Shown here piece by piece: positions 36,551 to 61,761 of a stretch of DNA of 64,000 bases. The DNA is taken from contig JAJTUQ010000004.1 of NCBI GenBank assembly GCA_021399445.1, positions 682,001-746,000 of the forward strand, in the 5' to 3' direction. This stretch comes from Xylogone sp. PMI_703 (taxonomy: Eukaryota; Ascomycota; Leotiomycetes). A model generated the notes under the pieces. That model ran no database searches, had not been told where the DNA came from, and saw nothing but the letters and a program-made list of their open reading frames with translations. Position 1 is the stretch's first letter, and the number at the start of each line of letters is the position of its first letter. The position numbers and the translations under genes are program-made.

Positions 36551-37862
36551 CTAGTTATATACTCTGCCGCCGTCGTAGTTACTCAGATATACCACAATTG
36601 AGCTAATGCATGGTTGATGCCGCATTTCATCTATTGCCCATGCATTAGGTATAACTTTAACCCTGGATGTTGTATTTATAGACTTCTAGTGTTTACTCTG
36701 GGAAAATAGTGACCGGACTCTTGCTCGATTAGGGACTCAACTTACTTAACCATACGATGTACATACATTATTAACAGAGTGTTGCAATCAACTATGCGAT
36801 CGCTCCCCTGTGTTATATCCAAGTCTATACGGTAATTAAAAAGGAGGGCTAAATCTAAAATCTCCATTACTTTATGGCTTTACAGCAGGCGGTAGAAAGG
36901 TAATAAGAACATATAAAATAGCTGAGAACTTAGCCTCCAAGTTTACTAAGCAATTAGCCATGGCACTGCCAATACTGTGGTGTTTGGATTAATACGCTGG
37001 GCCCTGGTAAGTGGCAATACTCCTCCGTACTATCGGCAAACCCCTTTCTAGCCAAACGAATAGAGCTTACATGGTGTACTTATCAGACTACTTGTACGTT
37101 ATTAATCTAAGCACCAATAATACACCAATATTAGCACTAGTAACACTAATCCGATTAAGCAAATCTCTATTGGCATTGGATAGCTAATATGTTGTTTGAC
37201 CAGTAGAATCGATTACATTTGATTACACTTTATTATCTTAGCCAAAGAAGTATGGATCTGCATATTACGCTTCCTAAGCTGAGGGAATTAATTAGTTATC
37301 TTGCCACCGCTATGGCATAGTGCCTCCGATCCTTGCCAGTACAGCAGCTAACGGCTGCATATCCTCGATATGGTAAAGTCCAATTGCCACTTATTTTTAG
37401 AGATTAAATACTCCGTAGGCCCAACTCAGAGAAAAAAACTAAGCAATGAATCAAAGCAAGAACTTGATCGTATCGCAATCAGTGCGCAGGCTCAGAAAGG
37501 GGATAAATCCATCCTCAATTGTTTTAAAATGACATTTGACCTCACTTTGTTAGGCTCCGTTCCGCCTGAAGCATGGATCAGTCATCGGCCCGGAGATAAC
37601 ATTATTTTGATCAACACTCACGCAGAGCCAGGGTACCGTTGGCACTAAATTGACGGCAGGGGGAGCTTCGATCGTCCCTAACATGGGAAAGGAAGGTCGG
37701 GGTTGATACAAAGGAAAAGGGAAGGTGAAGCGCATGCAAGAGTAGATTATAAGGAAGCGCGTTTCCGGTCGAGTTCCCTTTCGCTTTCTCTCCCTCGTGG
37801 TTCCCTATCGTCCTCTCCAATTTGGTTCTTGGGATCTGGGCGACCGCGGTGAAGCTTCAATT
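36551..37862. other. A/T-rich intergenic region
   Basis: About 1.3 kb without a supportable gene. A short frame at 37370-37648 has no domain. The right part is the sedolisin promoter. Confidence 0.45.
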
Positions 37863-39755
37863 ATGCTTTCCAAGACAGCATTTTATGCAGCGCTGCTGTG
37901 CCAGGCAATTCCTGCGCGAGCTGTCGTTCACGAACGTCTCTCTGCTCTGCCTCTGGGATGGTCGGCCCGCTCTGCTGCACACGACAATACGCCCATGTCC
38001 TTCACGATTGCGTTGGCACAGCAGAATATCGATCAATTGGAAGCGAAGCTTAAAGCTGTCTCTACTCCTGGCTCTTCCAATTATGGTCAACATTTGGACA
38101 TCGACGAGGTAAACGCATTGTTTGCACCAGTTGAGGGATCAGTGAATGCTGTTCAATCCTGGCTTAAGAGCGCGGGAGTGAAGCAGATCTCTGTCAATGG
38201 TGCCTTTATTTCTTTTGCCACCACGGTGGGAACAGCCAATTCGCTGCTCAACACGACGTTTACGCATTTTGAAAATAACGGAGTGTCCAAGATCCGTACG
38301 ACTGAGTACTCTGTGCCGTCCGAGCTGGCTAGCTATATCGATATAATTGACCCCACCGTATTCTTGGGCAAGACAGTTGCTGCTGCTCCAGCCATCCCAA
38401 GAGAATCTAAGATAGAGCAGCGTGTGGATGCCAATTGCTCAACGTCGCTCACCCCAGCTTGTATCCAGGAAATGTACAATACTGTTGGCTATAAACCAGA
38501 TCCTAGGTCCGGCAGCCGCGTTGGATTTGGTAGCTTCCTCAACCAATCTGCCGTTTATAGTGATTTATTCTTGTTTGAAGACCATTTTGGCATTCCGCAC
38601 CAGAATATATCGACTATCCTGCTTGCTGGTGCCACAAACGACCAGAATATCCTTACGGCCCAGAATGGGGAGGCCAATTTGGATGTAAGATGCTTCCCGG
38701 AGCGTTGCCTTATTTATGCGTTAACCCGAGTTCTTATAGGTACAAAATATCATCGGTATCAGCCATCCTCTTCCAGTTACAGAGTTTATTACTGGCGGCT
38801 CTCCGCCTTTCATTCCCAACCTGAATGAGCCGGTCGATAACACGAACGAGCCCTATCTGCCGTATTACCAATATCTGCTCTCAAAGCCAAATTCTGCTTT
38901 GCCCCAAGTTATCTCTAACTCCTACGGTGATGACGAGCAGACAGTTCCTGAGAAGTATGCCGTCAAAGTTTGTAACTTAATTGGCCTGATGGGTCTGCGA
39001 GGTATCACCATAATTGAGTCAAGTGGTGACAATGGTGTTGGAGCGCCCTGCCAAAGCAATGACGGGAAGAAGACTCCTCAGTTCACACCTGAATTCCCTG
39101 CTACCTGCCCATATGTCACCGCCATTGGTGGAACTGTTAGTATTTCTCCAGAATCTGCCTGGCAGGGAAGTGCTGGCGGTTTTAGCAACTACTTCCCTCG
39201 TGCCTGGTACCAAGAATCGGCAGTCGAGAAGTACTTGGACTCCCACATTAGCGCTGCGGTAAAGAAGTACTACAAGCCATACACTAACTTCAATGGAAGA
39301 GGGTTCCCTGATTTTTCAGCCCACAGCGCCAGCCCATAGTAAGTTATTTCCTCACTATATTTTCTCCTTGATATCTAAAGACGATGTTGCTGATGGGATT
39401 TAGTGAACAAGGATTCTACAGCGGACAGCTAAGCGTGAACGGAGGAACTTCAGCTGCTGCCCCTACCGTAGCTGGCATTATTGCTCTTCTCAATGACGCC
39501 CGTCTACGTGCCCACAAACCGGTGCTCGGCTTCATAAACCCACTGCTGTATCTCATTGGCTCCAAGGCACTCAATGATATTACATCCGGCGGAAGTATTG
39601 GATGCAATGGCTTCAGTTTCCAATCCGGTGCACCCATCCCTGGAGCCTCTATCATCCCATTTGCCTCCTGGAATGCGACGGCGGGATGGGATCCGGCGAC
39701 TGGGTTGGGTACTCCTGACTTTGAGAAGTTGAAGGCTTTGGTACTGTCTATTTAA
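37863..39755 (+). CDS. Sedolisin (S53) tripeptidyl-peptidase
   Basis: ATG 37863 gives a signal peptide ([20 protein letters not shown]). Two introns (about 38683-38739 and 39338-39403) join in frame. A pro-kumamolisin-type propeptide (about residues 25-190) precedes the catalytic domain. The S53 residues are present: Glu and Asp in GEANLD, the oxyanion Asp in SSGDNG, and the catalytic Ser in NGGTSAAAP. The C-terminal calcium site is also present (DITSG...[13 protein letters not shown]). It is a secreted acid protease that autoactivates and removes tripeptides from N-termini or cuts internally. Intact. It lies about 9 kb from the repeat precursor; a role in its processing is possible but not suggested by specificity. 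Confidence 0.93.
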
Positions 39756-41203
39756 GACGTGTCTGTGCTTGCAATGGGAACGTATCTCTAGAAGCAATTA
39801 ATTGGAATATATAGTGCATATTGCTTCGAATAACCTTCTGCTATCACTATTTTGCTGCTAATTTAAGTAACTTGCAAGCGGATTAAAGTGCTGCTTAATG
39901 AGCTAGTCTACTAAGTTCTAATCATTAGACCAAGTCTTATCCACCAAGTCCTTCATTATATATATATTAGAAGAGTAAAGTCTTGTAACACAAGGAGATT
40001 ATAGCTAGCCAGGATCTTAGTTACAGTTAACCAAGGCACTAGTGCCAAACTATCAATTGGTAGTCAAATAATTTTTAGTATGGACAGATTATACCGGTAC
40101 TGTACCCTATCGCTAAAGCCCCCTACGGCTGTTAGCTTCTTTAGCTTGGTTACAGGCCGAAGGCCTATAGCCTGTAGGGCTTGTAGTGTCTACTGTGCCT
40201 ACAGCGTTCGCATTTGTTTAGCCATAATGCACAGACACCGGTGGTATAGGATTTAATTGAGATAGGAACAGCTAAATATACAGAAGATAGTTAAAAGCAC
40301 GAAGATTTTGTAAATGCATACTATTTAGTTCTTTGATTATTTGTCGCTATAACACGGGTCAGCCCTATGTGGCCTAAAATGAGAAACTTTGCCGCCCGCA
40401 ACATAAAGACCTGAGAGGTGTTACTGTAAATCCGTCTCTAAGAGTTAAACCACACCGATACCGGTATTGGCTCACTATGGCTTTACTACACTGGGCTAGT
40501 CATAACGACCCTTAGTTAATTTCGAGTTAACTGTCTTTGATAATACGATAATTTCATTGTAACTCTTGGACCCTGAGGGCATCAGTACTTTAGGAAGTGG
40601 TAACGTACTCTTTCTTACTGGACAATATCAGAACCCCAGAGGCGTTACATGCTGAGTCTAGTGCTTACTTGCCGGTGTTGCATCGCGCCGGCACAACAAA
40701 AGTACCGGCATCTCACACGACCAAATATGGGACTAACTCCTGCTAAACGAGATTGTAGTCTTAGGAAGACCTGTCAGAGCCACAGATAGGGGTACAAACA
40801 ATCATGGCGTAGAGGATTCGCTTTTCCGATCTAACAAGACACGACTAGCGTGTATATTACTAGTAAAATTTGTTGGATGTCGAATCGCACGCAAGATTTT
40901 GTAGACACGCGCGTACATGCCTAAATGGTTAATGTGGTTTATTGGATTGTGTGATTGGGAAGGGGGTTCGGAATGTTCCACGAGTTCGTAATAGCATGAA
41001 GATGATGACTGTATCGACCTGGATGAGTGGAGAATAACGGTTAATGCCAGCAAGGAGATCTCGGATCTTGTCCGAGAGCGTTGCGGTAGCTGCGGCAGTT
41101 GATGGAGAATATATAATTCAACCGTTCGCTCTCCTTTCGTACCTTTGTACTTTAGATTCGGAAGCCAATATCGTTGCGAATTCTAAGCAGATCAATTCCA
41201 ACC
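39756..41203. other. A/T-rich intergenic region with scattered short inverted repeats
   Basis: No gene is seen. A block at about 40090-40210 contains overlapping short inverted and direct elements (CCTACGGC..., GGCCGAAGGCC, TAGCCTGTAGGGC) that may be the remains of a mobile element. The right 100 bp is the promoter of the DUF3431 gene. Confidence 0.4.
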
Positions 41204-42034
41204 ATGGCCCTAAGCAATGTGTCAACATGTTTGATACCAAGCATACCGACAGCCTCACTGGGTATCATGCCAACAAACTCCCCAAGTGTTAATTACTCAC
41301 CGTTGGCCATTCCCACATCCGAGATCAGCTTTGTTGTCACTCGATACAAAGAACCACTCGACCCATGGGAACTCGTGGCGAATCGCACATACCTATACGA
41401 TAAGTTCGGCTCACCACAATCCAGCGATGCTGTCCAGCACAGCTCCTTCCTCGAGTACAATCTAGCTCAGAACATTGGTCACGAACAACAGACTCTCTGT
41501 CTCCACTCATACAACCACTACGATGATCTCTCCGATGTTGTGATCTTCTCCCAGGCCGAGCCTTTCGACAACTTGCTCAGCCCTGCTGTCAATACCACAC
41601 TGCAAATGCTCGAGCTTGCTGCAGCTCAACCATTCGATCCGGCTTTTGCGCCCGCACTTATCTTCAACTGGGAACTCATCCACGATCTCGACCAATGGGA
41701 CCGCATCAACTGGTCATCGCCAGCAGAGGATTACTGGATTTCGGCATCTGAGAGAAAGACGTTGGCGCCGGCTCCGTATACCATGGGTGAATACTGGCAG
41801 TTCTTGTTTGGAAAACCTCATCCGGCGGCAGTGAGAGTAAATCATGGTGGGACATTTGCAACTACACGCGAGGCTATTCTGCGACACCCTAAAGAGTTCT
41901 ACAGTCGTTGTCTGGATGCGTTCAATTCCTGTGGACAGAATACGAGTAATGCCGAGCTTGGATTTTTCATGGAGAGGATGGATCTAGCGATCATTGATGA
42001 GACGTTCTGGCTGCCGCGAGTGTATCATCCTTGA
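41204..42034 (+). CDS. DUF3431-family protein
   Basis: Single-exon 276-aa frame from ATG 41204, in good context (aaccATGg). The core reads SFVVTRYKEPLDPWELV...YDKFGSP...FLEYNLAQNIGHE..., then a HSYNHYDDLSDVVIFSQAEPF strand and a C-terminal FWLPRVYHP. This matches the fungal DUF3431 group, which looks like a glycosyltransferase-related fold with an unproven function. No clear transmembrane anchor is seen in this start choice. Intact. Confidence 0.8.
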   Translation: MALSNVSTCLIPSIPTASLGIMPTNSPSVNYSPLAIPTSEISFVVTRYKEPLDPWELVANRTYLYDKFGSPQSSDAVQHSSFLEYNLAQNIGHEQQTLCLHSYNHYDDLSDVVIFSQAEPFDNLLSPAVNTTLQMLELAAAQPFDPAFAPALIFNWELIHDLDQWDRINWSSPAEDYWISASERKTLAPAPYTMGEYWQFLFGKPHPAAVRVNHGGTFATTREAILRHPKEFYSRCLDAFNSCGQNTSNAELGFFMERMDLAIIDETFWLPRVYHP

Positions 42035-42877: not shown

Positions 42878-43836
42878 TTAGACTTGCTCGCCGTTGGTCG
42901 TACCCATGACTGGATCGGCTGTAGCCGGGGTAACATTCTTCTCATGAAGCCCGTTCTTCTCATCCACGAGCCTCTGTCTATCCATGCGGTCATAGAGGCG
43001 GAGATCCAATTCGGTGATGTCAATGCGGGTATGACCGAATAAGAGAATGAATGCAAGAACAGGCTTAGTAAGGAGATCAAGAATGCCGTAGAAGATCTGT
43101 TCTGAATCAGGTGCAATGACATTACCACCTTCTGAAATGCCCCAGCAGATGGGGTAGAGGAGCCAGAGGTGGAAAATGTAAGGACAAAGGATGCGGTAGA
43201 GAGATCGGATATTTCCTCCCATAATGCTCGCGTGCCGGATGCCTGCGATGACGAGGCTCTCCAATACGAGAGCTAGGGCAACCATGCCGATGGTATAGTA
43301 ACCCCAGCGGTAGCTGTTGGGAACGAGAGTGCCGACATAGAGCATGAGCACATAGACCATTTCCAGCACAACGGAATAGAGGATGGTGTGCCAATAGACA
43401 CCAGCGGTCAAAAGGAGATTGAGGATAATCAGTGGGTGTGTAATGGCCCTAGTTTGTAAGCTATCAATTCCTAATCATAAAGAGGGATGATGTACCAGTC
43501 CACGTATCGGATCCAGAAGACCTGGCGAGTGCTGCCTGCAACGTCAGAGTCGCTTCTAGTCCACTCAACTGGAATAGCCATAGAGCCAATATCTGATGCA
43601 ATAGTGAAGTAATCAATCGCATTGACCACGACAATCAGGACACTGATATAGTGGAAAATGCGATCAGTGCGGGGCTTGAGAAAGAGCAGACCGAGAATAA
43701 CAAGCAAGGAGCAGAAGTCTACAGCGCAGACTGTCCACAGCCAGTCACTCCCACGGGCTGTGATGTGAATGTCTCCGGGCGGAGGGTTGTGTGATAGCAC
43801 ATCGTTACGTCGAAGGATTGCTGAGAAGCTCTCCAT
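42878..43836 (-). CDS. Microbial-type rhodopsin (fungal opsin)
   Basis: Two exons (43836-43496 and 43448-42878) join in frame to 303 aa with seven hydrophobic helices. Helix C reads RYVDWAITHPLIILN, so the proton-acceptor Asp (bacteriorhodopsin D85) is kept, while the D96 donor position is Asn. Helix F keeps the WLLYPICW retinal-pocket residues. Helix G reads LDLLTKPVLAF, with both the D212-equivalent Asp and the retinal-binding Lys (K216). It should therefore bind retinal, unlike Hsp30/Yro2-type opsin relatives that lack the Lys. It is expected in the plasma or an internal membrane as a light-driven pump or sensor. The join at VDW|A uses a GTACAT donor and CTAG acceptor and gives the conserved helix C, which supports it. 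Confidence 0.92.
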
Positions 43837-48560: not shown

Positions 48561-49155
48561 TCAGTTATCGACCTTCTGAGCGGATCTGTTGTCAACCTTC
48601 TGTGCTTCACGGTTATCGACCTTTTGAGCCGAGCGGTTATCGACTTTTTGGGCAGATCTGTTGTCTACTTTTTGAGCGGATCGGTTATCCACTTTCTGAG
48701 GAGATCTGTTGTCAACTTTTTGCGCCTCGCGGTTGTCGACCTTCTGAGCAGACCTGTTGTCGACTTTCTGAGCCTCACGATTATCAACCTTTTGGGCAGA
48801 ACGATTGTCTACTTTCTGAGCAGATCTGTTGTCGACCTTCTGTGGTGATCGGTTGTTGACCTTTTGAGGAGATCGGTTGTCAACTTTTTGAGCAGATCGA
48901 TTGTCGACCTTCTGGGGGGACCTGTTATCGACTTTTTGTGGAGAACGGTTGTCTACCTTCTGAGCCTCTCGGTTATCTACCTTTTGGGCTTCACGATTGT
49001 CGACTTTCTGTGCCTCGCGGTTATCAACCTTTTGAGGCGATCGATTGTCAACCTTTTGGGAAGATCGGTTATCGACCTTCTGGGCCTCCCTGTTGTCGAC
49101 TTTCTGCGCTTCGCGGTTGTCCACTTTTTGGGGAGATCTGTTATCAACCTTCTGG
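48561..49155 (-). repeat. 24-bp coding tandem repeat (25 units)
   Basis: The DNA unit is 24 bp (8 codons). Third codon positions vary freely between units (Val GTT/GTC/GTA/GTG, Asp GAT/GAC, Lys AAG/AAA, Gln CAG/CAA) while the encoded QKVDN stays constant, so the array is old or under selection on the peptide. Confidence 0.9.
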
Positions 49156-49393
49156 GGGCCACGAGCCAAAATATCAGCGGTAAGCTCGATACTAGGCACT
49201 ATCAGTCATTGACGATTAGCACATATTAAAATGTAGACATGTGCAGGAACTTACGAGCACTGCGCTTCTCCCAAGCTTCTGGAGCGTTAAGTCTCTCGAG
49301 CTCGGCTTCCAGAGCCTCACCGGTGAGCTGGGTTGGGTGCGGCAATGCCATGGCCCCGACAAGGAGGGTGGCAAGAATAAGAGAAGACTTCAT
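48561..49393 (-). CDS. Secreted multi-copy peptide precursor (RiPP-like), 25 QKVDN repeats
   Basis: Exon 1 (49393-49255) encodes a signal peptide (MKSSLILATLLVGAMA) and an acidic leader ending EAWEKRSA, with one KR dibasic site. A 56-bp GT-AG intron leads to exon 2 (49198-48561). The 258-aa product ends with 25 tandem copies of QKVDN (copy 13 is QKVNN) from residue 62 to the last residue. Copies are joined by R plus a dipeptide: EA 8 times, SA 8, SP 7, SS once; GP precedes the first copy. The stop follows the last QKVDN directly. This is the layout of fungal multi-core precursors such as UstA-type dikaritin and other Kex2-processed repeat proteins. The sites within the repeats are single Arg, not KR, and the core has no aromatic residue. 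Three UstYa-type genes lie to the right. A pheromone-like or structural secreted repeat protein are alternatives. Confidence 0.93.
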
Positions 49394-51439: not shown

Positions 51440-52573
51440 ATGCCAAATATGTTCAAGTACAACAGCCTTGAAGAGAAGGACTTCGCCATCACCCTGCTAT
51501 CCAATTCATCGAGCGGGCCAGACGAACAATGCTACATACAAGATTTGTTAGTCCGAGCAGCTCGTGAAGATAAAGCTTCGAGATACATTTTGGACGTCAA
51601 TAATGAGGTCTTCATATTGTATATCCTCCATGTCAACGAATCTTCGACGTCAACTATTGAAGAGGCGGTTTCAGCGTTTGCGGACTTTGCTCGCTCACGC
51701 CGGACTTGTTCAGCGTCGACATTCTATACAGCCGAGACAAGTTACCTCAATTCACAGCAAAAGAAGGAGATTTCCACATGTTTGGCTACTCTGTCTCGTC
51801 CCTACGGAACTTTTTATAACTCTCTAGCATTGCCGATTGCTGATGCTGAGCTGCTGAAGAAACGTCTGGAATCCCAGCAACGGCAAAGTATTGTCAGCAA
51901 ACTTAAGTCATCTCTCCTGACAGCCGGTCAATCTTGGAGAAATTCTATTTTAGTGAGAGTTGTTTTTTGGACAACAATCGCCGGGATATTTATATTTATA
52001 GCCGCTATCTCTCGTGGAGACTATTCAAAATCTTTTCATCAACATTATGAGCATGGCGTGTGGGTTCGATATGACCTCAAAGGTAGTGAAGGTCCGAAGT
52101 ACCAGCTGCAATTTACCCACCATAATGTTTCTGAATGGGCTGCTAAGAACCCCCATGACCACGGCGAATGGGCTCTCCGTATTGACGACCAAGCTATGAT
52201 TCCAGCACACTTGATGGACGAGGAAGAACTTCGTTATCAACGTTGGTTCCGGCAGCGGTACCCCGAGAAGGATCGAATTCGTCTTAACCAAGACTACTTG
52301 AAGGAGTCCTTCCTTGGTGACCCCGACCAAATCCAGGTTCCTACTGACAAGGCTTTTCATATGGCGCACTGTGTACGCGCATTGAGAAGATACTGGCAAG
52401 CAAAGGAAACTGGGAAGCACGTTTGCCCTAGAGATATTGATTACAGACACATGAAGCATTGTTTGGATTCTATGGATCAGTGGGCATTTCCAGATGGAGA
52501 GCGTGGTTCAGTCAAGCAGATTGTGGATCCTGGAACCTCGCATTTGATTTGGGAGACGAAGGTGTGCTTTTGA
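51440..52573 (+). CDS. UstYa-like protein with a long N-terminal extension
   Basis: Intronless 377-aa frame from ATG 51440 (MPNMFKYN); the extension to 51320 begins with TTG, so it is not used. About 175 N-terminal residues of unknown type, with an aspartate/serine-rich start and a predicted helical middle, come before one transmembrane helix (VVFWTTIAGIFIFIAAI). The lumenal part carries two HxxHC motifs, HMAHC and HMKHC, about 35 residues apart, as in UstYa/DUF3328. Normal UstYa proteins have only a short tail before the membrane helix, so the extension is unusual. It is the gene nearest the repeat precursor and is divergent from it. It is likely a tailoring oxidase in the ER/Golgi membrane, by family inference. 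Confidence 0.8.
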   Translation: MPNMFKYNSLEEKDFAITLLSNSSSGPDEQCYIQDLLVRAAREDKASRYILDVNNEVFILYILHVNESSTSTIEEAVSAFADFARSRRTCSASTFYTAETSYLNSQQKKEISTCLATLSRPYGTFYNSLALPIADAELLKKRLESQQRQSIVSKLKSSLLTAGQSWRNSILVRVVFWTTIAGIFIFIAAISRGDYSKSFHQHYEHGVWVRYDLKGSEGPKYQLQFTHHNVSEWAAKNPHDHGEWALRIDDQAMIPAHLMDEEELRYQRWFRQRYPEKDRIRLNQDYLKESFLGDPDQIQVPTDKAFHMAHCVRALRRYWQAKETGKHVCPRDIDYRHMKHCLDSMDQWAFPDGERGSVKQIVDPGTSHLIWETKVCF

Positions 52574-54382: not shown

Positions 54383-55404
54383 ATGTTTAACAAAGAGATC
54401 TATGAGTACAGTCCGACTGAACAAGATGATATAGAATCAGTTGACCATGTGCATTCGACAACATGGAAGAAGTCAACGTGGGATTTCTCATTGTTTTGGA
54501 TGTTGAAGGTCATGCTCGTGCTATTCCTCCTGCTATTTACAATTTTGGGGACATTTAGCATGTTCTATTCACAATTAAAAGATTCCAGAGCTGTTACCAC
54601 TGCGAAGGCTGATGGATATGGTTTTTTCCCTGACTGTATGCTCTATTCTGAGATATCCTTGACGTTTTAGCTAACAGAGTAGCAGTGCCGATGATTCAGA
54701 CAAAGTTCGCTGATGAGGGGGACTACTTACGTTTCGATGAGGTTGGAGATAAAGCATGGGACGCAATGATACCAAGTATAGAAACTACCCGTATTTCAAT
54801 CAGATAGCTAATATTTGATAGACGGAGCTGGTTATGTCCGTGTGCCTTACCCTCGACAGTATGGTCTCAATCCTAGTGTACCGTACGGTATCAATGACTC
54901 AGAAGAAGCTGAAATATTCCAAGCTTCTGTAGTTCACCAACTTCATTGTTTGGTATATTGATCATTCAGGCACGCTACCAAAATCGCTGACACTATTCAG
55001 GGTGCGCTGAGATACGTTCTACAAGCTTATAAGAAGGGCGAGATCCTAAACAATAAATACGATAGTATTCCACATATGACTCATTGTCTCAATAATCGTG
55101 AGTTTACCTGATATTAATAATACAGAATAAAGCTAACATTATCGCAGTCCGCCAGGGAATATTGTGTGCTTGTAAGAAATACTCTGCCTGATCTATACCG
55201 GATAACCATCTCACTAACTTGTGTTACTACACAGCCGATCCGACACTTACATTCGCCCAGCCAAAGCTCTTGGAAGACGGAACATACGAAGGTAAGTACC
55301 AAGGAATTGGAGCGGTCCATCAATGTAGGAACTGGGAAGCTACCAGAGAGTTCCTAGTAGAGCACCGGGCCAAAGAGTGGAACAAAACTATCGGCGAAAC
55401 TTGA
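54383..55404 (+). CDS. UstYa-family (DUF3328) protein
   Basis: Six exons (54383-54635, 54683-54775, 54822-54952, 55001-55097, 55148-55171, 55235-55404) splice in frame to 255 aa. One of them is only 24 bp. A cytosolic tail is followed by a transmembrane helix (about residues 38-60). The lumenal domain has the standard UstYa order: a GVPMIQ-like segment, YLRFDEVGDKAWDAMIP, the first motif HQLHC, the second HMTHC, LRQGILCASDPT, and a C-terminal HQCRNWE. It is the most canonical UstYa protein of the cluster and the best candidate for oxidation or cyclisation of the precursor peptide. All introns have GT-AG ends, so the gene is judged intact. It follows the long UstYa-like gene on the same strand. 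Confidence 0.92.
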
Positions 55405-55878: not shown

Positions 55879-56635
55879 TTATTTATCCTCAACAATACAT
55901 GTCGAGAAACCAACAGCTGTCGCCACTTCGATATCGTCAATACGGTCTTCACCGATCCCAGCATACTCCATCAGAATCTGGGTGCAGTGGAGCGTATGTT
56001 CATAGTCTCTGGCATTCTTGTCCATTCCTAGACCGCCTGCTAGATATCCTTTATGCTGCCTTCGCCAGCTGTACGCACAGTGTACAATATGCTCTCGCAT
56101 CGATCCCCAGTATCGCTGAGGATATATCATCTCGGACATCTGAGTCTCATTAAGGAGTTCAGTTCCTGCCTTGTCTGCATACCCTTGCCAAAATACGGCT
56201 TGCTTATACTGGTTGTTTGTCTCTGCATCTATGCATTCTCCTGGTATCCAGAGGAATGACAATGCATCAAACTGGCAACCAAGTGCTCTGGCTTCAGCAG
56301 TGGAGGTACCGCAGTGAAGAGTACGCGTCTTTGGAGCCTCACAGGAATCTATCGGCCGTTTGACCGTCAGAATGGCGAGCGAGACACTGGCAAATGTCCA
56401 TGCCACCAATCCGATACCAAAGATGAGTGTTCGTATGGTTTGGTAGCGTGAACGTTGATAACTGTTCATGTCGACACGGCTCTCTTGCGGAAGAAATCTT
56501 TCTGAACTAGATTCCGATACCGTAGTGCTATCATCTGCGAAAGAGAATTCGTCTTTCTCCCTCAAAGGGCTTCTTATCCAGTTAGAAGTTGTGGTGTAGC
56601 AGTGACGATCTCAAAACGTACCTGTGTTGCTCCAT
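55879..56635 (-). CDS. Divergent UstYa-like protein (HxxHC pair)
   Basis: A tiny first exon (56635-56622, ATG plus 11 nt) and a 49-bp intron join in frame to exon 2 (56572-55879), giving 235 aa. An acidic/serine-rich tail is followed by a transmembrane helix (LIFGIGLVAWTFASVSLAIL). The lumenal part has ALGCQFDALSFLWIPGEC, then HIVHC and HTLHC. The GC-x-FD...W...C block is typical of a fungal family related to UstYa by its paired HxxHC motifs but differing in the N-terminal lumenal part. It is convergent with the canonical UstYa gene. A role in the same pathway is inferred from clustering. An alternative start is the internal ATG before NSYQRS, which would drop the acidic tail. Confidence 0.75.
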
Positions 56636-59689: not shown

Positions 59690-61761
59690 TTACTCTTCGA
59701 CAAGATTGTTTTTCTCACTGTGTGATACATTAGCATATTTCACGGCTAAGGGCTAATTAAACTTACGGAAGAACTAGGTCTGGCATGAACCATACTAGAA
59801 CAAAACTAGGAATAGAGCTTCCGAGTGCCGTATAAGTCATAAAACGTAAGACATTGGTATACTATCAATCATGAGCCCTGCAATATCTGGTAGAGGCAGT
59901 TAGGACCTTACCGCATAGTTAATCGCGATTCGATCTGGCGTCCCCCAATCTGGAAGAACACCCGTGATAGAATTATACACCTGGTTGACTAATTCTTGCG
60001 AGACGCCGCCTCCAAGTTGGGATGTCAACTGGTCCTTGAAAGTATTCGTATAGATACCACCAGCAATAGACGCTCCGATACTGCTTCCTAAGAATGAGCA
60101 GCAAATGACTAGTGCTGTCATTTGAGACAGCTGTGCGTGTGGCACCACAACCTGAGCAGAGACCAATACCGCAGTTTGAATAATACCACTTCCAATGCCC
60201 TGAATAAGTTGCACAATAAAGAGCTCAGCCATGGAATTGTTTGCGCCTCGAAGTCTAATCATGACTCCATAGCCAATGAGCCGGATCACAACCGCGCCCA
60301 TGAGTAACCACTTGAATCGTCTTGTTTTAAGCATGATGTAACCGGCTATAATTCCAAAGAGACATTGGGTAACGCCATTTGTATATTGGTAAAAGGTGGC
60401 ATTTCTGGTGGAGAAATTGTGTGCCACAGTCACCCATGCGTAAATATACGTATGCGTGCACGAGAAACTCAGCGAGTCAGTGGCAATGAGCAGGCAGGAT
60501 GTAACGATTGTTGCGTTCTTAAAATAGTGGATTGGAACCAAAGGATATTTAGCAACATATTTCTCGTAAAATGGGAGAGCGATAAGCAGGACAGCTCCGA
60601 CTGCGATCAGCGCATCCAGATATGGCGTTCTCCATCGAGAAGTAGTAGTTGATGCCAGCGTCAGAGGCAGGAGCAGCATGGCGAAGCCCGCACAGAAAAG
60701 AATGCTTCCACCAAGATCAATCTGAGAGCAGAACTCATATATGGTTATCTTCTGACGCACAACAATTCCTGCTTTCTTAGCTTTGCTTTGAAAGTAAAGC
60801 AGCGTTGTGATGATGAAGCTAGAACAGAATGGCATGAGAATAGCCATCATACCAATTCCCCACTGCCAGCCTATTCCGTGGACAACGCTATCTACAATGA
60901 AAGCTGCAATCCAAGGCATGATCAGGAACGGAAAGAATGAGATACCGATGGCCAGACCTCTCCATCTTGCTGAAGATATATCCGAAATGATAATATCATT
61001 CATGATATTTGTACCTGATTGACCAATACAGTAAAAGACGTAGCCAGCGGCATAGGCATTGATACTTTTTGCGGAGGCGCAAAGGATATATGATAGGATA
61101 TAGCACGATATCGTAAGGAGGTACGTTTCACCACGTCCAATAATATTGGATAGCTTTGCAATCGGTGGTTTGACTACGGCAAAGATAATCTATAATTGCA
61201 ATAAAGCGACATTAGTATCCATCAGCAGGCAGGCATTGTCGATCTATTACAATATGAGGGCCATTCATAGATAAAATTCTCATTTGACACTTCACAAAGG
61301 TGGCACAGCAGAAGGAACATGAATCTAAAGAGGAGCTTACCACGCCTGCTGTTCCTAAAGCCGCAACTAGAGAAATCTCATCAAAGGATGATGTCGCGTA
61401 TGTCTGATACACATACACCGTGGAATTATCTAGCTCACTAAAACATTTGCATTGTCAAAAATTGTCTCTGGATACAGCAAGTCTGTACTTACTACATGGT
61501 CATCATCATTGCCAAACCTAGAATGATAAGATATCTCCCGTACTTTCCCCATACTGCTTGCACGGCTTCCACTCGAGCAACACCAGATTCAAGATCCGGA
61601 CGGTAAGCCGGCTTTTGTGTAATGTCGGCGTCATCTACATTCACCATCTCGATGTCCTTCTCTAGTGCGGGTACTTCCCTTGCTACTGGTACAACCTCCA
61701 CCACATCGCCTTGTTCAGGCAAAGGGCGGAGCTTGGTAGTGATTGCACTAATGAGGCCCAT
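59690..61761 (-). CDS. MFS transporter, siderophore-transporter type
   Basis: ATG 61761. Exons join in frame, and the 3' end needs two further introns after 59921 to reach VLPEKNNLVEE and the stop at 59690. The tail before it, RFMTYTALGSSIPSFVLVWFMPD, matches the fourteen-helix siderophore transporters (Arn/Mir/Sit group). Other signatures are YLIILGLAMMM...YVYQTYATSSF, ISDISSARWRGLAIGI, LALPFYEKYVAKYPLVP-like and an SIGASIAGGIYTNTF segment. Members import ferric siderophores; several secondary-metabolite clusters use relatives as exporters. Its place at the right side of the peptide cluster suggests export of the peptide or a metal link. Intact by eye. Confidence 0.88.

What the first reader, a model, noticed from the sequence alone, without database searches (positions are those of the whole stretch)
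48561..49393. Candidate new fungal RiPP precursor with 25 copies of a QKVDN core
Seen: signal peptide, KR-containing leader, one intron, then 25 tandem 8-residue units to the very last codon. Known: fungal dikaritin and Kex2-processed precursors share this design and are paired with UstYa proteins, and three UstYa-type genes lie within 8 kb. I recognise no described family with this core. Inference: the locus makes an undescribed modified pentapeptide or cyclic peptide.
Basis: partly seen in the sequence, partly recalled or inferred. Interest (0 to 1): 0.95.

Follow-up and report, generated by a model that had tools for sequence, protein, structure and literature searches.

The report
Fungal repeat precursor of QKVDN peptide
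A fungal gene next to three peptide-modifying enzyme genes encodes 25 copies of a five-residue peptide that look cut out at single arginines rather than at the usual paired basic residues, a design that published surveys for such genes would miss.

Summary
A spliced minus-strand gene (49393-48561) encodes 258 residues with 25 tandem cores, 24 QKVDN and one QKVNN, ending at the stop codon. Silent sites in the cores are saturated while residues hardly change, so the peptide is under strong selection. Three UstYa-type genes, each with two HXXHC motifs, start within about 7 kb. The genome is almost certainly Xylogone sp. PMI_703. The extended UstYa beside the precursor has three full copies there, and all three places hold a repeat precursor; 6 of 7 UstYa clusters I read (in part) do. 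So the RiPP reading is supported. Two features differ from the textbook. Cores are separated by one Arg plus a dipeptide that is X-Ala or X-Pro in 25 of 26 cases (a STE13-type signature), not by dibasic Kex2 sites. And the core has no aromatic residue. A second precursor in the genome (YKITVGQ x12) has no dibasic site and 33 of 33 X-Ala/X-Pro dipeptides. Likely product: (pyro)QKVDN, probably oxidised by UstYa enzymes. New variant of a known kind; processing, product and chemistry are untested.

The parts
48561..49393 (-). precursor gene, two exons (49393-49255, 49198-48561), 258 aa
49255..49393 (-). exon 1: hydrophobic start (signal peptide by eye) and leader up to ...EKRSA
49199..49254 (-). 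56-nt intron GTAAGT...GATAG; of the two acceptors tried only this one keeps the repeat frame
48564..49154 (-). 25 cores (24 QKVDN, 1 QKVNN) separated by Arg + SA/EA/SP/SS
51440..52573 (+). extended UstYa-type membrane protein (X), 377 aa, two HXXHC (HMAHC, HMKHC), about 170 residues before the membrane helix
   Evidence: PF11807 17.1 bits, below the cut-off of 25; 73 relatives besides itself; invariant His/Cys columns in 41 aligned sequences; helix from model
54383..55404 (+). canonical UstYa, six exons spliced by me, 256 aa, HQLHC and HMTHC
   Evidence: PF11807 84.2 bits, cut-off 25
55879..56469 (-). short UstYa-type protein (S), two HXXHC (HIVHC, HTLHC), no Pfam match; 37 other matches in the genome
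57683..59208 (+). CDH-cyt-like + cytochrome b561-like membrane protein with introns; membership of the cluster uncertain
   Evidence: CDH-cyt 19.1 bits, below cut-off 27; b561 part, spliced by hand, 27.5 bits, cut-off 23
59900..61189 (-). MFS transporter, main exon; membership of the cluster uncertain
   Evidence: PF07690 65.3 bits

Best explanation
The gene is the precursor of a small secreted, ribosomally made peptide in a UstYa cluster. The protein enters the secretory pathway (judged from its N-terminus by eye). A kexin-type or other Arg-specific protease cuts after each single Arg (inferred). A STE13-type dipeptidyl aminopeptidase removes the X-Ala/X-Pro pair from each N-terminus, and a Kex1-type carboxypeptidase removes the trailing Arg (inferred from the sequence pattern and from processing of other fungal repeat proteins). 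The stop codon directly after the last core marks the C-terminus. This frees up to 25 nearly identical QKVDN peptides per protein, whose N-terminal Gln probably closes to pyroglutamate (inferred). One or more of the three membrane-bound UstYa-type proteins then oxidise the peptide, by cross-link, hydroxylation or another change at Lys, Val, Asp or Asn (inferred; which change is unknown). Step confidence: peptide precursor 0.95; cut at Arg plus dipeptide trimming 0.75; UstYa modification 0.65; ring formation 0.35.
For: Array, gene model, linker counts. Core residues conserved against saturated silent sites, while the linkers vary more (pN 0.38) yet stay X-A/X-P (25 of 26 dipeptides after Arg). 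Three UstYa-type genes next door. The extended UstYa X has 3 full-length copies in the 50 Mb genome, each in a cluster with short and canonical UstYa hits, and the other two places also hold repeat precursors, with nine QVMVKYDADE-type and five SSGTAVGPVAEEVVETYD-type cores. 3 of 4 further UstYa clusters, read as one 10-kb stretch each, do too. A second precursor, YKITVGQ x12 at C19:6464014-6463469, has the same Arg + X-A/X-P design, 33 of 33 dipeptides, no dibasic site, and also ends on the core. A third, QYRNADW at C1:8783611-8783333, has KR + X-A/X-P ladders and ends on its core. The genome has one match to the kexin-type P domain and one to the DPPIV N-terminal domain. Precedent: a Coprinopsis repeat protein made in Pichia gave QYKAPSW and pyro-QYKAPSW after removal of X-A/X-P, and several products appeared to come from cuts after single Arg (PMC9769878, passages).
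Against: Single-Arg sites with Asn or Gln before them are not canonical Kex2 sites. No expression, splicing, peptide or mass evidence. The core has no aromatic residue, so the known UstYa cross-links cannot apply as such. No homologue of the precursor was found, so co-inheritance with the UstYa genes across species is untested. UstYa-type genes are very many here (124 gene-like hits in 55 clusters), so some neighbours could be there by chance; of 30 short loci (104 kb in all) around UstYa hits only 2 show a repeat precursor, and one of the 10-kb cluster stretches (L071) shows none. Relatives of X occur in many fungi whose neighbourhoods I could not read.
Confidence: 0.62

Rival explanations
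1. Unmodified signal or pheromone-like peptide: the precursor is cut and trimmed like an alpha-factor and releases linear (pyro)QKVDN; the UstYa genes serve something else.
For: X-A/X-P dipeptides after the basic site are the STE13 signature of alpha-pheromones (PMC6339444 section 9; counts). No aromatic residue to cross-link. No alpha-pheromone of the W-C-x3-G-[QE]-x-C type (motif recalled) was recognised in this genome: 6 pattern hits against 5 for the control pattern, none in a repeat or KR setting.
Against: Repeat precursors sit in 6 of 7 UstYa clusters read here, and published mating-factor precursors, with three exceptions, had no DUF3328 neighbours (PMC7329392 abstract). The core looks unlike known alpha-pheromones (recalled).
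Confidence: 0.25
2. Structural or surface repeat protein (cell wall, fibre or repellent type) that works uncut or as aggregated peptides.
For: Such secreted repeat proteins exist: Rep1 of Ustilago maydis is mentioned as giving amyloid-like fibrils (PMC9769878, passage).
Against: Short, charged, nearly invariant cores; linkers restricted to X-A/X-P in 25 of 26; ends exactly on the core; UstYa neighbourhood; a second precursor with the same linker logic but an unrelated core.
Confidence: 0.08
3. Dead or unexpressed repeat array, no longer a gene.
For: No expression data; no relative found.
Against: Open frame through 25 units with saturated silent changes and pN 0.0066 in the core; intact splice sites.
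Confidence: 0.05

Closest known systems
Dikaritins (ustiloxin, phomopsin, asperipin-2a, victorin)
   Same: Secreted multicore precursor beside UstYa/DUF3328 genes with two HXXHC motifs.
   Different: No dibasic sites between cores; no aromatic residue in the core; no tyrosinase or methyltransferase among the eleven ORF or spliced products of neighbouring genes that were scanned.
Epichloecyclins (GigA)
   Same: Multicore secreted precursor, presumed side-chain cross-linking.
   Different: GigA products are nonapeptides cross-linked Tyr-Ile (PMC9233826, passages); here a pentapeptide with neither residue.
KEX2-processed repeat proteins (KEPs), including the published core motif QKLKVD
   Same: Signal peptide, tandem near-identical cores, protease-cut linkers; QKLKVD shares letters with QKVDN.
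   Different: Survey definitions need KR, RR, KK or RK between repeats; here only Arg. Whether QKLKVD precursors are relatives could not be tested: only the motif is in the main text.
Ascomycete alpha-pheromone precursors and alpha-pheromone-like KEPs
   Same: X-Ala/X-Pro dipeptides after the basic site; pyro-Gln products known for QYKAPSW.
   Different: Single Arg, one dipeptide only, unrelated core, UstYa neighbours.

Membership tests
dikaritin RiPPs | multicore precursor with N-terminal leader | tested here: met
   (signal peptide by eye only)
dikaritin RiPPs | DUF3328/UstYa gene nearby with two HXXHC motifs (class-defining per passages of PMC12048977) | tested here: met
   three genes; the same passages say that DUF3328 genes are not exclusive to RiPP clusters
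dikaritin RiPPs | Kex2 dibasic sites flanking each core | tested here: not met
   one KR, in the leader; none between the 25 cores
dikaritin RiPPs | aromatic residue (Tyr or Phe) in the core for the cross-link | tested here: not met
   QKVDN
dikaritin RiPPs | tyrosinase, methyltransferase or peptidase in the cluster (not needed in all) | tested here: inconclusive
   none among the eleven ORF or spliced products of neighbouring genes scanned; the region was not scanned exhaustively; a sedolisin-like ORF about 9-11 kb away (37746-39755) was named by eye only
dikaritin RiPPs | cyclised product | not testable with these tools
   needs mass spectrometry
KEX2-processed repeat proteins (survey definition) | at least 3 repeats between dibasic sites (KR, RR, KK; also RK in one survey) | tested here: not met
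   against definitions
KEX2-processed repeat proteins by processing | kexin does the cut | not testable with these tools
   a P-domain match is present once in the genome; the cut itself is untested
alpha-pheromone precursors | X-A/X-P dipeptides that STE13 would remove | tested here: met
   sequence pattern only: 25 of 26 dipeptides after Arg
alpha-pheromone precursors | W-C-x3-G-Q-x-C type core (motif recalled) | tested here: not met
   QKVDN

The most novel reading that the evidence does not exclude
A distinct subclass of fungal RiPP precursors uses single-Arg cleavage plus STE13 dipeptide trimming instead of dibasic Kex2 linkers, so dibasic-based surveys miss it; in this cluster three UstYa-type oxidases act on a core without any aromatic residue, giving a UstYa-made peptide of new chemistry (for example at Lys, Val or Asp), with pyro-QKVDN as backbone.
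Probability: 0.35. Interest if true: 0.72.

Novelty: new variant of a known kind. Interest (0 to 1): 0.52.

Why it matters
If right, published counts of fungal repeat precursors (7878, in 1345 of 1461 strains, by dibasic search; PMC7329392 abstract and detection section) are too low, because precursors with single-Arg linkers, two of which were found in this one genome, would not be counted. The genome also yields a usable handle: the extended UstYa led to a repeat precursor in all three of its full-length places. And a UstYa cluster with a non-aromatic pentapeptide core would test whether this enzyme family modifies aliphatic or charged side chains in RiPPs.

Tried and rejected
Homologue searches with the whole precursor (5593 candidates, none at E<=10) and with residues 1-66 (110 candidates, none) led nowhere. 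The database holds fungal proteins, but the precursor's own record did not come back, so spliced genes may be missing or the repeats filtered; absence is weak evidence. Prokaryote and viral contig scans for two neighbouring units gave 0. Pfam matches of the precursor to gp5 trimerisation (42.5 bits, above its cut-off of 30.9), Fibrinogen_BP, Cornifin and Sgo0707_N2 (below theirs) were set aside as repeat artefacts. Alpha-pheromone pattern: control-level hits. Fold of X: mean pLDDT 84.3, pTM 0.48; no PDB match with E<=0.001, so no function from structure. The prokaryotic promoter/terminator scan says nothing about a fungus. Literature: I saw listings (in one search only 15 of 105 papers were listed); of single-Arg processing in fungal repeat proteins I found the remark in PMC9769878 (passages) and background in PMC2515848 (passages); most listed papers were not opened, and supplements were not available. 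The victorin paper is not held, so its processing sites are not compared. One search was a mistaken call (wrong alignment type).

Dropped before the counts: the UstYa list used all hits of three searches, merged exon pieces within 400 bases and had the window's canonical UstYa added by hand, so 124 is approximate. In the repeat scans frames on the other strand or frame of the same array were not counted as precursors; L006 (YGDYGDY, low complexity) and L033 (low complexity, identity 0.5) were not counted; with one stricter rule (lag identity 0.75 or more) one search gives the same precursors and none of these. The 15 control loci (46.8 kb) came from other searches, not from a random draw. In one search, 16 hits to the R-E-[AP] ladder pattern (control pattern 5): 6 lie in the YKITVGQ gene, 2 in the QYRNADW gene, 8 were not read.

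Full report
What is there. The window is C20:682001-746000 of a 50.1 Mb, 25-contig genome. A database protein named for Xylogone sp. PMI_703 is 375/375 identical to an ORF on contig C19, and its listed contig length, 8,055,043, equals that of C19; so the organism is almost certainly that fungus (Leotiomycetes, genus lineage). The finding's gene is on the minus strand: exon 1 49393-49255, a 56-nt intron, exon 2 49198-48561, 258 aa. The leader ends ...EKR-SA-LPSIELTADILAR-GP and is followed by 25 cores, 24 QKVDN and one QKVNN. The 24 linkers are RSA 8, REA 8, RSP 7, RSS 1, and the last core is directly followed by the stop codon.

Selection. All 24 full units differ in DNA. In the five core positions the silent differences are saturated (pS 1.10) and the amino-acid differences almost absent (pN 0.0066); in the two linker positions after Arg pN is 0.38. 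The array is therefore old and maintained, and the core is what is maintained, together with Arg and the class of the dipeptide.

Linker logic. After the leader's KR and every later Arg comes a dipeptide ending in Ala or Pro in 25 of 26 cases (SA 9, EA 8, SP 7, GP 1; the exception is SS). X-Ala/X-Pro after the basic site is the STE13 signature of alpha-pheromone precursors (PMC6339444, section 9 read). There is no KR, RR, KK or RK in the array. The two large surveys cut in silico at KR or RR, otherwise at KK (PMC6339444, pipeline section read), or asked for KR, KK, RK or RR between repeats (PMC7329392, detection section read); this precursor would fail both.

An independent second case. In another UstYa cluster of the same genome, C19:6464014-6463469 encodes MHFSRIATAASVLAIASALP followed by 12 YKITVGQ cores, linked by REAEPEP 6, REAAPEP 2, REAQPEP 1, REAEPAP 1, RNAEPEP 1; 33 of 33 dipeptides are X-A/X-P, there is no dibasic site, and the protein ends on the core. 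A third, C1:8783611-8783333, found by searching for R-E-[AP] ladders (8 of its 16 hits were not read), has QYRNADW cores with KR followed by EAEAEP-type ladders and also ends on the core. So the genome shows KR + ladder, Arg + ladder, and (in the window) Arg + one dipeptide. Precedent for processing: in Pichia, a Coprinopsis repeat protein gave QYKAPSW and pyro-QYKAPSW after KEX2 and STE13 action, and several products appeared to come from cuts after single Arg (PMC9769878, passages).

Neighbourhood. X (51440-52573) is an unusual UstYa relative with about 170 residues before its membrane helix; Pfam UstYa scores 17.1 bits, below the cut-off of 25, but its relatives include two named DUF3328, and several His and Cys columns are invariant in 41 aligned sequences. 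The gene at 54383-55404, spliced by me, is a canonical UstYa (84.2 bits). The gene at 56469-55879 (S) has two HXXHC motifs and no Pfam match. Two HXXHC motifs are quoted as a reliable mark of RiPP-related DUF3328 proteins, although the family is not exclusive to RiPPs (PMC12048977, passages). Further right lie a CDH-cyt-like/b561 protein and an MFS transporter; whether they belong is open.

Is the UstYa link more than chance? UstYa-type genes are abundant here: about 124 gene-like hits in 55 clusters from three searches. X, however, has only 3 full-length copies, and each lies in a cluster with short and canonical UstYa hits. Both other X places (20 kb read at each) hold a repeat precursor: C12:7722575-7722000, nine QVMVKYDADE-type cores with KR; and C19:2206849-2207340, five SSGTAVGPVAEEVVETYD-type cores with KR, the last with RK. 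Of four further multi-UstYa clusters, read as one 10-kb stretch each, three hold one (QTTGDKSPKYEDYEVSKR, DFAEPLLGE-type, YKITVGQ) and one, L071, does not. That is 6 of 7 clusters including the window's, 5 of 6 without it. Against this, of 30 short loci around UstYa hits (104 kb in all) only 2 show such a precursor, L002 and L015; those loci are short. The scan found none in the rest of the window (62.5 kb; its left end also has a UstYa gene) and none in 15 other loci (46.8 kb). The controls are small and not random.

What it most likely does. Secretion, cut after Arg, removal of the X-A/X-P pair and of the trailing Arg, and probable pyroglutamate formation at Gln would free one nearly uniform product from all 25 units. 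The genome has one P-domain match and one DPPIV N-terminal-domain match. The UstYa proteins then probably oxidise it. Comparing the three X clusters, the residue before Asp is Tyr, Tyr and Val (KYD, TYD, KVD); this may mark the modified place, but three cases do not test it. UstYa relatives are reported to hydroxylate and chlorinate as well as to form ether bonds (PMC12048977, passages), so a non-aromatic core is no bar.

What is against it. No transcript, peptide or mass evidence. The sites N-R and Q-R are poor Kex2 sites (general knowledge). No aromatic residue is present; in the survey 65.6% of repeated sequences with DUF3328 neighbours contain Tyr (PMC7329392, section read), so about a third do not, and lack of Tyr alone is not unique. 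No homologue of the precursor was found. A linear, pheromone-like product remains the main rival.

Novelty. QKVDN occurs in two papers of the held library, both unrelated, and YKITVGQ in none; main texts only. One published KEP core, QKLKVD (PMC6339444 section 10), shares letters with QKVDN; I could not see those precursors, so a distant relation is open. Searches for single-Arg or STE13-type RiPP precursors gave the single-Arg remark of PMC9769878 but no described class in what I saw. I therefore file this as a new variant of a known kind: a UstYa-associated repeat precursor with single-Arg/STE13-type linkers and a non-aromatic core.

Noticed in passing
window 51440-52573 and relatives P0002-P0013: The window's X protein is 57-64% identical to its twelve closest relatives, of which the named ones are Pleosporales (Parastagonospora, Bipolaris, Aaosphaeria), while the C19 copy groups with Leotiomycetes (Oculimacula 93/95, Venustampulla 84/38). 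This could mean horizontal transfer of the cluster, or old paralogues with thin sampling.
   Followed up: partly
L066/L067 (C12:7722000-7722575): Repeat precursor with nine QVMVKYDADE-type cores and KR linkers, near X, S and canonical UstYa genes, a Zn2Cys6 regulator and a TAP-like alpha/beta hydrolase.
   Followed up: partly
L065 3038-3330 (C19:2206849-2207340): Repeat precursor with five SSGTAVGPVAEEVVETYD-type cores in a UstYa cluster with a sugar-transporter-type MFS protein.
   Followed up: partly
L069, L070, L002, L015: Four more repeat precursors near UstYa genes: QTTGDKSPKYEDYEVSKR, DFAEPLLGE-type, RDTDNVASYQWKK-type, NNPKFDYPGSPDEALEKR-type.
   Followed up: no
L072 (C1:8783333-8783611): QYRNADW repeat precursor with KR + X-A/X-P ladders about 4 kb from a UstYa hit; its core resembles QYKAPSW of a Coprinopsis repeat protein.
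   Followed up: partly
whole genome G000: Very large UstYa repertoire: about 124 gene-like hits in 55 clusters.
   Followed up: no
window 42878-43474: Bacteriorhodopsin-like membrane protein ORF (PF01036, 59.1 bits).
   Followed up: no
window 41156-42034: DUF3431 protein (42 bits).
   Followed up: no
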